Positions 2,047 to 6,046 of a stretch of DNA of 64,000 nt are shown piece by piece. The position numbers were made by a program, and so were the translations under genes. The first letter of the stretch is position 1. Each line of letters begins with the position of its first letter. The notes below the pieces were generated by a model. The model saw only the letters and a program-made list of their open reading frames with translations. It was not told where the DNA came from and did no database searches. Source of the DNA: Candidatus Endomicrobiellum devescovinae (GTDB taxonomy: Bacteria > Elusimicrobiota > Endomicrobiia > Endomicrobiales > Endomicrobiaceae); contig JAIRYK010000022.1 in the NCBI GenBank assembly GCA_031267795.1, positions 62,001 to 126,000 of the forward strand, in the 5' to 3' direction.

Positions 2047-3342
2047 TTATTTTTTAAATAATCGTTTAAAAATATATCCTACATTTTTAAATTGAGATTT
2101 TACGTCGCAATCTTTTCTAATCTCATTAGGATTCATATATTTTTTTATGTCTTGGCTTCTAAGACATGCTTCCTCAAAAGATATTTTGTTATCCCTTGCA
2201 TCAAATGCTGCAGCCTGCGTCATTGCATAAGCATCTTCTCTAGATACGCCTTTGTCCACCAAAGAGAGAAGCGCAGTCCCAGAAAAAATAATATCTTTTG
2301 TTTTGTCTATGTTTGCCTGCATGTTTTTAGGGTAAACATTAAGACCTGACAATAACCCTTGCATTCTGATAAGCATGTAGTGTAAAACTATTGAAGCATC
2401 GGGAAACATAATCCTTTCCGTGGAAGAATGGCTTATGTCGCGCTCGTGCCACAACGCTATATTTTCCATAGCGGTAACAGCATATCCCCTTAAAAGGCGA
2501 GCAAGTCCGCAGATATTTTCCGAAATTATAGGGTTTCTTTTGTGCGGCATAGCAGACGATCCTTTTTGCCCTTTCGTAAACGGCTCTTCAGCTTCCGCTA
2601 CTTCCGTCCTTTGTAAATGTCTTATTTCTACGGCAATCCTTTCAAGACATGCACCGACGTGTGCCAAAGTAGAAAAATAAATTGAATGTCTGTCGCGGGG
2701 AACGATTTGCGTAGAAACAGGTTCTGGCTTCAATCCCATTTTTTTGCATACATACTTCTCAACGCTAGGATCCAAATGAGCCATAGTGCCAACTGCACCT
2801 GAAATTTTACCATAGCTTACAGTCTCAAGAGCAAAATTCAATCTATTTAAAGACCTCATAATTTCACTGTACCAAGAAGCTACCTTTAATCCAAAAGTCA
2901 TCGGCTCTGCATGCACACCGTGAGTTCTTCCCATTATAGGAGTCATCTTATACTTATTTGCCAACTTTGCCGTTATAACAGACAATTTCTTAGTCTCTTC
3001 TATAAGAAGTTCTGTAGCTTGTCTAAGCTGCGCACCAGTAGCTGTGTCTAAAACATCGGAAGACGTCATACCTAAATGTAAAAAACGTCCTTCATGACCA
3101 ACAGTCTCAACAACGCTAGTAAGAAAAGCTATAACGTCGTGCTTAACTGTAAGTTCTATTTTGGCTATTTTTTTAACATTTATTTTTGCTTTTTTCTTTA
3201 TGGTCTCCACAGCTTTTTTGGGAACTGTGCCTAACTTTGACATAGCTTCCGCTGCAAAAATTTCAACTTCAAGCATTTTTTTAAATCTGTTTTCATCTGA
3301 CCAAACTGCAGCCATTTCAGGCTTAGTATAACGAGAAATCAT
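2047..3342 (-). CDS. purB: Adenylosuccinate lyase
   Basis: Cleaves SAICAR to AICAR in de novo purine synthesis and adenylosuccinate to AMP, releasing fumarate each time. The 431-residue length is normal. The fumarase/aspartase superfamily signature GSSAMPHKRNP is visible near residue 265, with the substrate motifs TSSDVLDT (about 93) and GRTHGVHAEP (about 138). Its ribosome site AAGAGG is the same sequence that encodes the last codons of purN, and a copy of that purN tail sits directly upstream at 3344-3403. The ancestral order was therefore purN-purB with the purN stop two bases before this ATG; the DUF1016 gene now separates them. Confidence 0.96.
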   Translation of the reverse strand: MISRYTKPEMAAVWSDENRFKKMLEVEIFAAEAMSKLGTVPKKAVETIKKKAKINVKKIAKIELTVKHDVIAFLTSVVETVGHEGRFLHLGMTSSDVLDTATGAQLRQATELLIEETKKLSVITAKLANKYKMTPIMGRTHGVHAEPMTFGLKVASWYSEIMRSLNRLNFALETVSYGKISGAVGTMAHLDPSVEKYVCKKMGLKPEPVSTQIVPRDRHSIYFSTLAHVGACLERIAVEIRHLQRTEVAEAEEPFTKGQKGSSAMPHKRNPIISENICGLARLLRGYAVTAMENIALWHERDISHSSTERIMFPDASIVLHYMLIRMQGLLSGLNVYPKNMQANIDKTKDIIFSGTALLSLVDKGVSREDAYAMTQAAAFDARDNKISFEEACLRSQDIKKYMNPNEIRKDCDVKSQFKNVGYIFKRLFKK

Positions 3343-3343
3343 T

Positions 3344-3403
3344 TTTAACCTCTTAAATTTTCTTCTATAACTTTTTTAATTGCCTGTGGGTATATTTTAT
3401 GCT
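3344..3403 (-). repeat. 60-bp direct repeat, copy A (purN tail duplicate)
   Basis: This stretch is identical at all 60 positions to 4487-4546, the true 3' end of purN. It carries the last purN codons, the stop and the AAGAGG used as ribosome site by purB. It has no upstream purN body and cannot be translated as PurN. With copy B it brackets the DUF1016 gene. Confidence 0.95.
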
Positions 3404-3421
3404 TTATTCTTATATTTCTAA

Positions 3422-3446
3422 ATTTTCCAGACAATATCTAGAAAAT
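3422..3446. repeat. 25-bp palindrome, copy 1 (3' of DUF1016 gene)
   Basis: An imperfect palindrome with arms ATTTTCCAGACA and TATCTAGAAAAT around a single central base, beginning just beyond the DUF1016 stop. It differs from the copy inside the gene (4145-4169) at only three of 25 positions. On the plus strand it is followed by six T, so it may also act as a terminator there. Confidence 0.8.
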
Positions 3447-3449
3447 TTT

Positions 3450-4454
3450 TTAATCATTTAATATTTCTTTTACTTTGTTTTCTAATAATTTCTTATCAGG
3501 TAAATATAACTGATATTTTGAAACAAAAATTTTATTTGAAAGTCCGCCTGTAGCATATTTTACAAGAAATTCATTTTTATCAGCGGCTATAATGATTCCT
3601 ATTGGATCATTATCACCTTCAACATTTTCTTCATCCTTAAAGTAATTCAAATACAGATTCATTTGCCCAATATCTTGGTGTTTAACTTTTGAAGATTTTA
3701 AGTCAATAAGAACAAAACATTTTAATATTCTGTGATAAAAAACTAAATCAATGTAATAATGCTCGTTATCTATTGTAATTTTGTGTTGCCTTGCAACAAA
3801 AGAGAAGCCATTGCCTAATTCTAATAGAAATTTCTGCAAATTATCAATCAATTTCCTTTCCAAAGTTCTTTCTTTAATAATTTGCCCTTTTGGTAATTCA
3901 TAAAATTCAAAAATATACGGATCTTTGATGGTATCTTTTGGACTTGCTATTTCTTGCCCTTTGTTTGCAAGAGCCAACACTCCCTTTTTATCTTTGCTTA
4001 ACGCTAATCGTTGAAACAAAGCTGTTTTTATCTGTCTTTTTAATTCTCTGAAACTCCAATTTTCTTTTATTGACTGCTTCTCATAAAAAGACCTTGCTAA
4101 ATCGTCGGATACCGTTAAAAGTTCTGAATAATGGCTCCAACTTAATTTTCCAGACAGTGTCTGGAAAATTGGGTATTTAATATAGAACTGTCTGCATAAA
4201 TATATTGAACTTTTACTAAAACCATTACCATTTTTATATTTCAAATCTTTTGAAATTTTTGATAACAAAGAACTTCCGTAAACTGCTTTTTCTTTACCCT
4301 TCTGTTCGTATTCAACAATATATCTTCCGATTTCCCAATTTGCTTTTATCAATTCATTATTTATAGCTTTAAAAGCATTTTCCTTTGCTCTTTGAACTAA
4401 ATTTGTAATATTATTGATAAGTTGATTGTACATCTTATTATTGGTAAGTTTCAC
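3450..4454 (-). CDS. DUF1016/YhcG-family PD-(D/E)XK nuclease
   Basis: 334 residues of the YhcG (DUF1016) family: an N-terminal helical DNA-binding half (roughly 1-150, with WEIGRYIVEYEQ and LSWSHYSELL) and a C-terminal PD-(D/E)XK nuclease half. Catalytic candidates are Asp236 in YYIDLVFYH, Asp251-Leu-Lys253 in FVLIDLKSSK and Gln264 in QMNLYLNYF. Most relatives have Glu where this one has Asp251, a conservative change. The start is GTG at 4454, six bases after AGAGG. The family is linked to mobile DNA and defence loci, but its substrate is not well established. It lies between purN and purB, which are otherwise operon partners, and is flanked by a perfect 60-bp repeat, so it is an inserted gene. 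A palindrome within codons about 97-104 recurs after its stop. Confidence 0.88.
   Translation of the reverse strand: MKLTNNKMYNQLINNITNLVQRAKENAFKAINNELIKANWEIGRYIVEYEQKGKEKAVYGSSLLSKISKDLKYKNGNGFSKSSIYLCRQFYIKYPIFQTLSGKLSWSHYSELLTVSDDLARSFYEKQSIKENWSFRELKRQIKTALFQRLALSKDKKGVLALANKGQEIASPKDTIKDPYIFEFYELPKGQIIKERTLERKLIDNLQKFLLELGNGFSFVARQHKITIDNEHYYIDLVFYHRILKCFVLIDLKSSKVKHQDIGQMNLYLNYFKDEENVEGDNDPIGIIIAADKNEFLVKYATGGLSNKIFVSKYQLYLPDKKLLENKVKEILND
4145..4169. repeat. 25-bp palindrome, copy 2 (inside DUF1016 gene)
   Basis: Perfect 12-bp arms (ATTTTCCAGACA and its complement) around one central G, within the coding sequence for the residues FQTLSGKL of the DUF1016 protein. The near-identical copy at 3422-3446 lies just past the stop codon. 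A perfect palindrome inside a coding region is unexpected by chance and suggests a recognition or recombination site. Confidence 0.85.
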
Positions 4455-4486
4455 TAAATACCTCTATTATATTATCCTTATGCCCA

Positions 4487-4546
4487 TTTAACCTCTTAAA
4501 TTTTCTTCTATAACTTTTTTAATTGCCTGTGGGTATATTTTATGCT
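4487..4546 (-). repeat. 60-bp direct repeat, copy B (3' end of purN)
   Basis: This is the authentic purN 3' end with its stop codon at 4488-4490. It is identical over 60 bp to 3344-3403, 1143 bp away. Beyond the repeat the two flanks diverge quickly. Complete identity in an AT-rich, decaying genome points to a recent event. Confidence 0.95.
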
Positions 4547-5087
4547 CTACTTCTAAAACTTTTCTTGCCACTTCTTCAGGAGTATCGCTCTTAGAGACTT
4601 CTACTTCTTTCTGCAGAATTATTTTGCCAGAATCATATTCTTCATTTGCAAAATGCACAGTTGCTCCAGATTTTTTTTCCCCTGCTTTTACAACAGCCTC
4701 GTGAACAAAATGCCCATACATACCTTTGCCGCCAAATTTTGGAAGAAGAGCAGGGTGAATGTTTAAAATTCTTCCATTGTAAACATTCAATATTTCTTTA
4801 TCTATCATTCTCATATAGCCAGCAAGGCAGACTAAGTCGGCATTTGCGGCTTGAAGTTCTGCAAGAACTTCCTTGTTAAAAGATTCGTCATCTTTAAAAC
4901 TCTTTCTTTCTATACAAACAGATTTTATATTTTCTTTTTTTGCTCTTTCCAAAACAAAGGCATTTGTATTGTTTGAAATAACCAAAACGACTTCAGCCAG
5001 ACCTTTTAATACGCCGAACTTGTGCGCATCTACTATAGCTTGCATATTAGAGCCGCCGCCGGAAGCTAAAATTACAAGCCTAATCAT
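4488..5087 (-). CDS. purN: Phosphoribosylglycinamide formyltransferase
   Basis: Transfers a formyl group from 10-formyl-tetrahydrofolate to GAR, giving FGAR (third step of purine synthesis). 199 residues, normal for PurN. Seen: ASGGGSNMQAI phosphate loop at 8-18, the catalytic Asn/His in ILNIHPALLPKFGG near 107-120, and the Asp of EEYDSGKI near 150. The start overlaps the purM stop (ATGA), so translation is coupled. The last 19 codons are duplicated downstream of the inserted DUF1016 gene; the copy fused to this gene is complete, so PurN is intact. Confidence 0.96.
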   Translation of the reverse strand: MIRLVILASGGGSNMQAIVDAHKFGVLKGLAEVVLVISNNTNAFVLERAKKENIKSVCIERKSFKDDESFNKEVLAELQAANADLVCLAGYMRMIDKEILNVYNGRILNIHPALLPKFGGKGMYGHFVHEAVVKAGEKKSGATVHFANEEYDSGKIILQKEVEVSKSDTPEEVARKVLEVEHKIYPQAIKKVIEENLRG

Positions 5088-6046
5088 ATAATTTCAACGC
5101 CTCTATTTCCTTTTTTAGTATAACCTATGGCTTTAGCACCTTTGAAAAACTTTTTAACTTGCAAAGCTATCTCAGGGCGAACAATCAAAACCATTCCTAT
5201 TCCCATGTTAAGAGTTCTATAAATATCATCCTGCGGAACTTTTCCTTTTTCTTGAACAAGTTTAAAAATTTCAGGGACTTTCCAAGAATTTCTTTCAATT
5301 ACTACTCTAATACTTTCTGGGAGAATTCTTTCTATTTTATCGTAAAAACTTCCGCCTGTAATATGGGCTATGCCGACTATATTTTGTTTGTTTGAGTTAA
5401 ACTTTGAAAGAGCTGCTAAAACTTCTTTAACATAAATTTTAGTCGGAGCAAGTAGCTGTTTTGAGTATCTTTTAAGTTCTGCGTCAGAAAAAACTTTTCT
5501 TATAAGAGAATATCCATTTGAGTGCGGACCGCTTGAAGGAAGACCTATTACAACATCGCCAGATTTTATCTTCTTGCCGTTTATTTGTTTGCCCTTCTCA
5601 ATTATTCCTACTGAAAAACCAGCTAAATCATATTCGCCGTCTTTGTAGAAGCCAGGCATTTCTGCAGTTTCTCCGCCGATAAGAGAAGAGCCTGATAACT
5701 CGCAGCCTTTGGCTATACCCTTTATAACTTGTTCGGCTTGACCTACGTTTAACTTTCCGCAAGCAAAATAATCCAAAAAGAAAAGAGGCTTGGCGCCAAC
5801 GCATATCAAATCATTTACATTCATAGCTACTAAATCTATCCCTACTGTGTCATGCTTATTAAGAAGAAATGCAAGTTTTAATTTTGTCCCTACTCCATCA
5901 GTTGAACTTACAAGATTGTATCTCGTTCCATTTATCGGAAAAAGCCCACCGAACCCTCCGATTTTAGGTAGCTTCTTTTTCAACCTTTTTACAAGATCAT
6001 TTCCTGCATCAATGTTTACTCCTGCACTCTTATATGTTATAGACAT
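5084..6046 (-). CDS. purM: Phosphoribosylformylglycinamidine cyclo-ligase (AIR synthetase)
   Basis: Closes the imidazole ring: FGAM plus ATP gives AIR. 320 residues, slightly short of the usual 340-350, with the shortening mostly at the N-terminus, which begins SITYKSAGVNIDAGN. The ATP/substrate motifs STDGVGTK (about 48), GGETAEMPGFY (about 119) and GLPSSGPHSNGYSL (about 170) are all present. A GAGGA site precedes the ATG at 6046. It overlaps purN by four bases and follows nhaC with a 19-base gap. Confidence 0.96.
   Translation of the reverse strand: MSITYKSAGVNIDAGNDLVKRLKKKLPKIGGFGGLFPINGTRYNLVSSTDGVGTKLKLAFLLNKHDTVGIDLVAMNVNDLICVGAKPLFFLDYFACGKLNVGQAEQVIKGIAKGCELSGSSLIGGETAEMPGFYKDGEYDLAGFSVGIIEKGKQINGKKIKSGDVVIGLPSSGPHSNGYSLIRKVFSDAELKRYSKQLLAPTKIYVKEVLAALSKFNSNKQNIVGIAHITGGSFYDKIERILPESIRVVIERNSWKVPEIFKLVQEKGKVPQDDIYRTLNMGIGMVLIVRPEIALQVKKFFKGAKAIGYTKKGNRGVEII

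What the first reader, a model, noticed from the sequence alone, without database searches (positions are those of the whole stretch)
3344..4546. DUF1016 nuclease gene inserted between purN and purB with a perfect 60-bp copy of the purN 3' end
The sequence 3344-3403 equals 4487-4546 at all 60 positions. The inner copy is the real purN end; the outer copy abuts the purB ATG and supplies its ribosome site. The insertion thus restored both the purN C-terminus and purB translation. Long direct repeats of a gene's 3' end flanking cargo are the usual mark of site-specific integration (att sites), but no integrase is present, so the 1.1-kb unit may be moved in trans or by the encoded nuclease itself. 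Identity suggests a recent event.
Basis: partly seen in the sequence, partly recalled or inferred. Interest (0 to 1): 0.78.

Follow-up and report, generated by a model that had tools for sequence, protein, structure and literature searches.

The report
Single-gene nuclease inserted with target duplication
A lone nuclease gene (DUF1016/YhcG) sits between two purine genes, bracketed by a 60-bp duplication of the spot it entered. Relatives show that such genes have inserted this way more than once, and most of them also hold a DNA palindrome inside their own coding sequence that may be what the protein recognises.

Summary
3344-3403 equals 4487-4546 at all 60 positions and brackets a DUF1016/YhcG nuclease gene. 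It is a true insertion: in the 28 other Endomicrobium purN loci read, purN is followed by purB without it, and the nearest relative (G063) has one copy of the 60 bp. Each copy is in the ancestral context of its neighbour, so both genes stay intact.

This is not an att site: other DUF1016 insertions duplicate other sequences (uvrD-like helicase end 94 bp, radC end 45, starts of other genes 37-89). Direct repeats hug 23 of 212 DUF1016 genes against 6 of 314 control ORFs. This matches 'insertion with long target duplication', known for restriction-modification genes. 'Recent' is not supported: G023 shares it at about 7% divergence.

Beyond the finding, DUF1016_N resembles the palindrome-binding domain of ParB/Noc, and 161 of 212 DUF1016 genes carry a ~27-bp palindrome inside the ORF (controls 11 of 314). 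It lies in the part coding that domain; its arms covary beyond what the protein requires. I propose it is the protein's own binding site. How the gene inserts is inferred.

The parts
4488..5087 (-). purN (phosphoribosylglycinamide formyltransferase), intact
   Evidence: ORF; Formyl_trans_N E 2.7e-54
4487..4546 (-). inner copy of the 60-bp duplication = real 3' end of purN
3404..4486 (-). inserted unique DNA (1,083 bp; with one repeat copy 1,143 bp); absent from G063 and the other empty sites read
3450..4454 (-). DUF1016/YhcG gene, 334 aa, GTG start
   Evidence: PADLOC PDC-S02 E 4.4e-136
3999..4355 (-). codes residues ~34-152, ParB/Noc-like DNA-binding domain
   Evidence: Noc/ParB chains at Z 6.9-8.5; HTH_ParB matches in 19 of 47 family members; hhalign E 1.7e-4, probability 49.8
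4144..4170 (.). in-gene 27-bp palindrome AATTTTCCAGACAGTGTCTGGAAAATT, in the ParB-like coding segment (residues ~95-104)
   Evidence: family-wide tests
3474..3935 (-). codes the PD-(D/E)XK nuclease domain (Pfam stretch 174-327); conserved E212, D236, D251-x-K253 (motif assignment is inference)
3421..3447 (.). trailing imperfect copy of the palindrome, just after the DUF1016 stop; better preserved in G023
3344..3403 (-). outer copy of the 60-bp duplication; recreates the empty-site junction and ribosome site of purB
2047..3342 (-). purB (adenylosuccinate lyase), intact

Best explanation
A solitary nuclease gene of the DUF1016/YhcG family entered the purN-purB junction as a one-gene unit and duplicated 60 bp of target DNA. 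SHOWN: the insertion, the duplication, the empty sites, the same pattern at other genes with other duplicated sequences, and an ORF-internal palindrome typical of the family. INFERRED: this is the mode called 'insertion with long target duplication' for restriction-modification genes. Nicks or ends tens of bases apart on the two strands (or a repair/replication equivalent) are joined to the unit, and filling in copies the stretch between them; the unit's own nuclease is the likeliest source of the break. The direct repeats then allow precise loss, which is the simplest reading of G063, and gene conversion between the copies. INFERRED: the protein is a ParB/Noc-like palindrome-binding domain fused to a PD-(D/E)XK nuclease, and the palindrome inside its own gene is its binding site. 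In the known case of plasmid SCP2, the ParT protein likewise has its parS site inside the parT gene.
For: Empty versus occupied sites: 30 purN loci read (of 41 genus genomes searched): 2 occupied (G000, G023), 28 with purB next after purN and no DUF1016; the G063 junction has one copy, 60 of 60 identical to the repeat. Second case: uvrD-like helicase (Pfam) 3' end, 94 of 94 bp in G022 and a diverged pair in G029, with single-copy empty sites in G016 and G059. Further gene-anchored cases: radC 3' end 43 of 45 bp (L010); gene starts in L137 (~89 bp in two pieces), L224 (75 of 87, right copy opens a 421-codon frame) and L029 (33 of 37, right copy opens a 475-codon frame). Statistics: repeats hugging both gene ends in 23 of 212 DUF1016 genes against 6 of 314 control ORFs, Fisher p 1.3e-5. 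Horizontal movement: the protein is 79-80% identical to two Bacteroidota copies, but 42% to the copies in G022 and G029 of its own genus. ParB kinship: HTH_ParB in 19 of 47 members (E limit 10), best E 3.1e-6, one DUF1016 gene just above the Pfam cut-off (G042:C46), hhalign E 1.7e-4 with probability 49.8, Noc/ParB chains at Z 6.9-8.5 over 93-103 residues. Palindrome: 161 of 212 genes against 11 of 314; at a fixed place 522 of 728 base pairs formed against 308 expected from synonymous shuffling, Z 18.5, 56 genes. Precedents: PMC12260392 passages; PMC3031569 and PMC1643837 passages.
Against: No movement was observed and no nuclease or binding activity is known from these calls. 189 of 212 DUF1016 genes show no hugging repeat; decay may explain this, but it was not shown. 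A first test on 80 named loci was weak: repeats of score 18 or more in 11 of 80 against 8 of 124 shifted windows. Some of the 23 overlap the gene ends or lie in AT-rich simple repeats (e.g. L130, L214, L223), and ten are only 23-31 nt long. The radC site is not a clean empty-site case: relatives carry a different gene after radC, and G054 has further genes between. Control ORFs are stop-to-stop ORFs, some not real genes. The palindromes of different genes share little sequence beyond their plan, so one fixed recognition sequence is excluded. The trailing palindrome is not significantly enriched family-wide (10 of 212 against 7 of 314, p 0.09). Nothing links the palindrome to the 60-bp target, in which I see none. 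Structure confidence is moderate (mean pLDDT 72.7), the Z values are near the level that can be chance for helical folds (note), the window protein itself has no HTH_ParB match, and the hhalign probability is about 50%.
Confidence: 0.62

Rival explanations
1. Site-specific integration of a mini-element at an att site in the purN 3' end, by an integrase in trans.
For: A gene 3' end is duplicated around cargo and restored, as with integrated islands.
Against: DUF1016 insertions duplicate different sequences, 23 to 125 nt, including gene starts; no more than 10 exact bases are shared between different events; no integrase in the unit.
Confidence: 0.06
2. A small circle carrying DUF1016 plus 60 bp of purN end integrated by ordinary homologous recombination (Campbell type); the direct repeat is only its homology arm.
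For: Gives exactly the observed structure, and excision by the reverse route explains the empty site in G063.
Against: A circle must first have picked up the local purN sequence, so this explains spread or re-entry better than the first insertion; it cannot by itself explain different targets.
Confidence: 0.15
3. A passive event: illegitimate, replication-based (template-switch) repair pasted the gene and duplicated the target; DUF1016 plays no part and is kept for defence.
For: PADLOC lists the family as candidate PDC-S02 in its anti-phage library; selection for the cargo alone would keep such events; patchy, often broken copies in the genus.
Against: Repeats hug the gene on both sides more often than control ORFs (23 of 212 against 6 of 314), so the unit tends to be 'just this gene'. 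This does not show that the gene causes it.
Confidence: 0.3
4. The in-gene palindrome is recognised as a structure (cruciform or hairpin) by the resolvase-like nuclease domain, not as a sequence by the ParB-like domain.
For: Arms vary while symmetry is kept; the YhcG nuclease domain was predicted to be nearest YraN/archaeal Holliday junction resolvases (PMC1189080 passages).
Against: Noc/ParB-type DNA-binding domain in the same protein and an experimentally shown in-gene parS for ParT; the Pfam side matches of the nuclease are HSDR_N_2 and NucS_C.
Confidence: 0.3
5. The palindrome acts in the mRNA as a hairpin (regulation or decay), with no DNA role.
For: It folds stably as RNA, z -5.4 for the sense strand.
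Against: Among imperfect pairs, G-T/T-G (16) are no commoner than A-C/C-A (15), so there is no sign that sense-strand G-U pairs are tolerated.
Confidence: 0.12

Closest known systems
Insertion of restriction-modification genes with long, variable target duplication (Nobusato et al. 2000; Furuta et al. 2010; seen here only as described in passages of PMC3031569 and PMC1643837)
   Same: Nuclease gene(s) without transposase or integrase; long duplication of variable length; empty allele in a relative
   Different: One gene, no methyltransferase; an in-gene palindrome typical of the family; a ParB-like domain
ParT of plasmid SCP2 (PMC12260392, passages) and ParB/Noc proteins
   Same: ParB-type DNA-binding domain; for ParT the site (18-bp inverted repeat) lies inside the protein's own gene
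   Different: DUF1016 has a PD-(D/E)XK nuclease domain and no partition partner was sought; palindrome is ~27 bp, its sequence differs from gene to gene; binding untested
E. coli YhcG and PADLOC candidate PDC-S02
   Same: Same family; E. coli K-12 yhcG has three in-gene palindromes and one after the stop
   Different: No flanking repeat found around the K-12 gene; a yhcG match in 4,417 of 5,426 E. coli genomes
REP elements with RAYT transposases (recalled)
   Same: Nuclease gene with nearby palindromes
   Different: Here the palindromes are not dispersed: in one chromosome-sized E. coli record all 3 places lie in or just after yhcG

Membership tests
DUF1016/YhcG family | DUF1016_N and YhcG_C domains over Pfam cut-off | tested here: met
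   141.5 bits (cut-off 32.8) and 198.5 bits (cut-off 32.5)
DUF1016/YhcG family | conserved PD-(D/E)XK residues | tested here: met
   E212, D236 and K253 invariant and D251 at least 90% conserved in 47 sequences; assignment to the motif is inference
Insertion with long target duplication | empty allele with one copy of the duplicated stretch | tested here: met
   purN: G063; uvrD-like: G016, G059
Insertion with long target duplication | duplication long and different at each target | tested here: met
   23-125 nt; at most 10 exact bases shared between different events
Insertion with long target duplication | restriction-modification gene pair | tested here: not met
   only a DUF1016 gene lies between the repeats
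Integrase/att-type genomic island | integrase gene in the element | tested here: not met
   only one gene in the unit
Integrase/att-type genomic island | same att core at every insertion | tested here: not met
   duplicated sequences differ
Insertion sequence | terminal inverted repeats and transposase | tested here: not met
   no inverted repeat of 16 nt or more at the unit ends (shorter ones not tested); no transposase domain
ParB/Noc DNA-binding domain | HTH_ParB profile match | tested here: inconclusive
   19 of 47 members match at E up to 10, best 3.1e-6; not the window protein itself; one gene just over the cut-off; hhalign E 1.7e-4, probability 49.8
ParB/Noc DNA-binding domain | fold of the Noc/ParB DNA-binding domain | tested here: inconclusive
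   12 Noc/ParB entries at Z 6.9-8.5, rmsd 3.0-3.8, 93-103 residues among the 50 rows shown; pLDDT block means 69-91 in residues 31-150
ParB/Noc DNA-binding domain | binds the palindrome | not testable with these tools
   needs protein
REP/RAYT system | palindrome dispersed in the genome | tested here: not met
   found only at DUF1016 sequences in 3 of 41 genus genomes and in one E. coli record
Homing endonuclease | cuts the empty allele at the insertion site | not testable with these tools
   needs an enzyme assay; no such palindrome is visible at the G063 empty site

The most novel reading that the evidence does not exclude
DUF1016 genes are self-addressed mobile nucleases. The same ~27 bp of DNA is both the palindromic site that the protein binds and the code for the part of its ParB-like domain just before the conserved SWSHY motif, so target and reader change together whenever the palindrome changes. 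The nuclease, loaded on its own gene, makes the ends that let this one gene insert elsewhere with a long target duplication. This would be a mobile element made of a single gene that carries its address inside its reading frame.
Probability: 0.15. Interest if true: 0.95.

Novelty: new variant of a known kind. Interest (0 to 1): 0.76.

Why it matters
It gives a widespread family of unknown function (DUF1016/YhcG, a phage-defence candidate) two concrete handles. One is a mode of spread with no transposase in the unit, shown by clean empty and filled sites. The other is a candidate DNA site that can be tested at once, because it sits in the gene itself. A DNA palindrome kept inside coding sequence in bacterial and archaeal members, with arms that change together, is unusual and would be a direct way into how these nucleases choose their target.

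Tried and rejected
Chance repeat: rejected (60 exact bases). Assembly artefact: unlikely (same structure in G023). Dispersed repeat family: pattern CCAGACANTGTCTGG found in 3 of 41 genus genomes, in each only inside DUF1016 sequence. RNA family at the locus: no believable Rfam match in 2900-5200. Solved relative by sequence: none credible. NCBIfam: none. E. coli yhcG as a strain-level test of target duplication: no flanking repeat, but two strains with an empty gltD-nanQ site keep a lone palindrome. Trailing palindrome as a family-wide feature: not significant; an earlier count was 10 of 106 against 12 of 453 other regions. Promoter-like element upstream of some Elusimicrobiota DUF1016 genes: its palindrome does not match the in-gene ones, so it was not used as evidence. 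Plasmid and phage DUF1016 copies were listed (60 of 455 and 15 of 15 records shown) but, apart from H8 and H64, not read. Rows dropped: one search found the anchor motif in 82 loci and lists 22 without it; one search used 56 of 79 anchored genes after removing near-duplicates; searches used 212 of 229 gene calls (too near a contig end, or duplicates); the structure alignment used the window protein and 46 of the 73 stop-free loci. G000 and G023 share one insertion but count as two of the 23.

Full report
OBSERVATION. The direct repeat is real: 3344-3403 and 4487-4546 match at all 60 positions. Between them lies one gene, 3450-4454 on the minus strand, with DUF1016_N and YhcG_C domains; purN is upstream and purB downstream in the same direction. 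In the genome (G000, 1.28 Mb, 24 contigs) this was the one match to the protein.

EMPTY SITES. Of 41 genus genomes searched for PurN I read 30 purN loci. Two are filled (G000, G023); in the other 28 purN is followed by purB, up to about 400 nt on, with no DUF1016 match. The site of G063 reads purN-TTAAGAGGTTAAAAATG-purB and has one copy of the 60 bp, identical at 60 of 60 positions. In the filled site the inner copy is in the context of purN and the outer copy in that of purB. The unit of 1,143 bp thus arrived with a duplication of its target.

AGE. G023 shares the insertion. DNA identity G000-G023 is 93.1% for the DUF gene, 93.1% for purN (first 540 nt) and 94.5% for purB; G000-G063 purN is 96.5% and purB 94.8%. 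In the helicase region on another contig G000-G063 are again the closer pair (94.4% and 93.5% against 89.8% and 91.8% for G000-G023). The simplest history is an insertion before G000 and G023 split and precise loss in G063. Local exchange of the whole block is not excluded, since it is slightly more alike than the helicase region. At one repeat position both copies of G023 differ from both copies of G000, so the copies are either homogenised or arose twice. 'Recent' is therefore not supported.

RECURRENCE. In G022 a different DUF1016 gene (42% identical protein) follows a UvrD-like helicase gene (Pfam) whose last 94 bp are repeated exactly after it. G029 has the same with diverged copies and a stop inside the nuclease gene. 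G016 and G059 have the empty site with one copy. DUF identity G022-G029 is 97.8%, flanks 96.9 and 97.0%, again with bases that agree between the two copies within a genome but differ between genomes. Other gene-anchored cases: radC 3' end 43 of 45 bp in L010 (Pfam name); starts of downstream genes in L137 (57- and 37-nt pieces, ~89 bp in all), L224 (75 of 87 bp, right copy opens a 421-codon frame) and L029 (33 of 37 bp, right copy opens a 475-codon frame). In these gene-anchored cases the DUF gene runs the same way as the duplicated neighbour. The radC case has no clean empty site: four other genomes carry the radC end once in the stretch read, and where I printed what follows it is other DNA or another gene. 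In a survey of 212 distinct DUF1016 genes, repeats hugging both ends (within 130 nt) occur in 23, against 6 of 314 control ORFs from the same loci (Fisher p 1.3e-5); a looser count is 41 of 212 against 19 of 326. The first, smaller test gave 11 of 80 loci against 8 of 124 shifted windows, which is weak. The 23 repeats are 23-125 nt long, ten of them 31 nt or less, and no two from different events share more than 10 exact bases. Some of the 23 are doubtful, and G000/G023 are one event.

WHAT THE GENE IS. The closest proteins found outside the genus are 79-80% identical and come from Bacteroidota, which points to transfer between phyla. PADLOC models call it PDC-S02, a candidate in its anti-phage library. 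Kosinski et al. 2005 (PMC1189080, passages) placed the YhcG nuclease domain nearest YraN-like and archaeal Holliday junction resolvases and left the N-terminal domain without a match. Here the N-terminal domain aligns to Noc and ParB DNA-binding domains (Z 6.9-8.5, rmsd 3.0-3.8, 93-103 residues) in a model of moderate confidence (mean pLDDT 72.7). HTH_ParB matches 19 of 47 family members (best E 3.1e-6) but not the window protein; one DUF1016 gene just passes the Pfam cut-off; and a profile comparison with 20 ParB-type domains gives E 1.7e-4 but only 49.8% probability. Together this makes kinship likely, not proven. ParB binds palindromic parS sites (PMC7022226, passages).

THE PALINDROME. The window gene holds AATTTTCCAGACAGTGTCTGGAAAATT at 4144-4170. 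In 161 of 212 DUF1016 genes, but only 11 of 314 control ORFs, there is such a palindrome; 152 of the 161 lie 240-420 nt from the start. Where the SWSHY-like motif was found, the palindrome as a rule sits just before it. At a fixed position in 56 non-redundant genes, 522 of 728 pairs form, against 308 expected if only the protein mattered (Z 18.5). Arms differ between genes but change together, also between E. coli alleles. G-T/T-G and A-C/C-A imperfections are about equally frequent (16 and 15), so nothing points to RNA. In one chromosome-sized E. coli record (4.9 Mb, deposited as a plasmid) the motif with up to 2 mismatches occurs at 3 places, two in yhcG and one just after it. The window has an imperfect copy just after its stop (3421-3447), better kept in G023; all 11 E. 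coli loci read that keep the yhcG 3' end have one too, but family-wide such trailing copies are not significantly enriched.

READING. The insertion mode matches what Kobayashi and colleagues described for restriction-modification genes: insertion with long, variable target duplication (PMC3031569 and PMC1643837, passages; the original papers were not read, and Furuta 2010 was not held). For the palindrome the nearest precedent is ParT of plasmid SCP2, a ParB-like protein whose parS site, an 18-bp inverted repeat, lies inside its own gene (PMC12260392, passages). I propose that DUF1016 proteins bind the palindrome in their own gene through the ParB-like domain. Whether the nuclease drives insertion is not shown.

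LITERATURE. DUF1016 is mentioned in 10 papers of the library (listing; passages of PMC4316617); YhcG with 'palindrom' in 4 (listing; in PMC7967276 the passages read do not describe a palindrome in yhcG); YhcG with 'nuclease' in 8 (listing); PDC-S02 in 4 (listing). No paper held DUF1016 together with 'long target duplication' or 'direct repeats flanking'. I found no report of the in-gene palindrome or of DUF1016 target duplication in these searches, but most of the listed papers were not opened and the library lacks most subscription papers.

Noticed in passing
L149 1299-1325; L152 3957-3983 (E. coli, gltD-nanQ without yhcG): Two E. coli strains that lack yhcG keep a lone palindrome AATTCGCCAGACAGTGTCTGGCGAATT at the spot where other strains have yhcG followed by a palindrome with different, again matching arms.
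   Followed up: partly
L066, L289, L290 (E. coli yhcG): K-12 yhcG has three in-gene palindromes spaced 39 nt (13 codons); the O157:H7 allele L289 lacks 78 nt relative to L290, i.e. two units, with the frame kept.
   Followed up: partly
L150 1468-2269 (E. coli CUVM53): A yhcG fragment that ends about 90 nt after its in-gene palindrome, followed by a short 'transposase' gene in place of the nuclease part; the same pair of names is listed for several other strains.
   Followed up: no
L160, L170, L173, L208, L210, L249, L252, L268: A conserved promoter-like element (GACA-N5-TTGTC ... CTGCTATGCTATT) lies within 32 nt upstream of the called DUF1016 start in 7 of these 8 Elusimicrobiota loci, with second copies downstream in L249 and L252.
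   Followed up: partly
G036:C20:28843-29142 beside G036:C20:29649-30710: A strong HTH_ParB match (E 1.4e-21, 376-aa frame) lies about 0.5 kb from a DUF1016 gene on the same strand.
   Followed up: no
G004:C43:11835-12004: An extra 170-bp copy (85%) of the uvrD-like 3' end away from the helicase gene, possibly a relic of another insertion.
   Followed up: no
G004, G005, G009, G016, G025: These Endomicrobium genomes hold only short or stop-bearing DUF1016 matches, suggesting repeated gain and decay in the genus.
   Followed up: no
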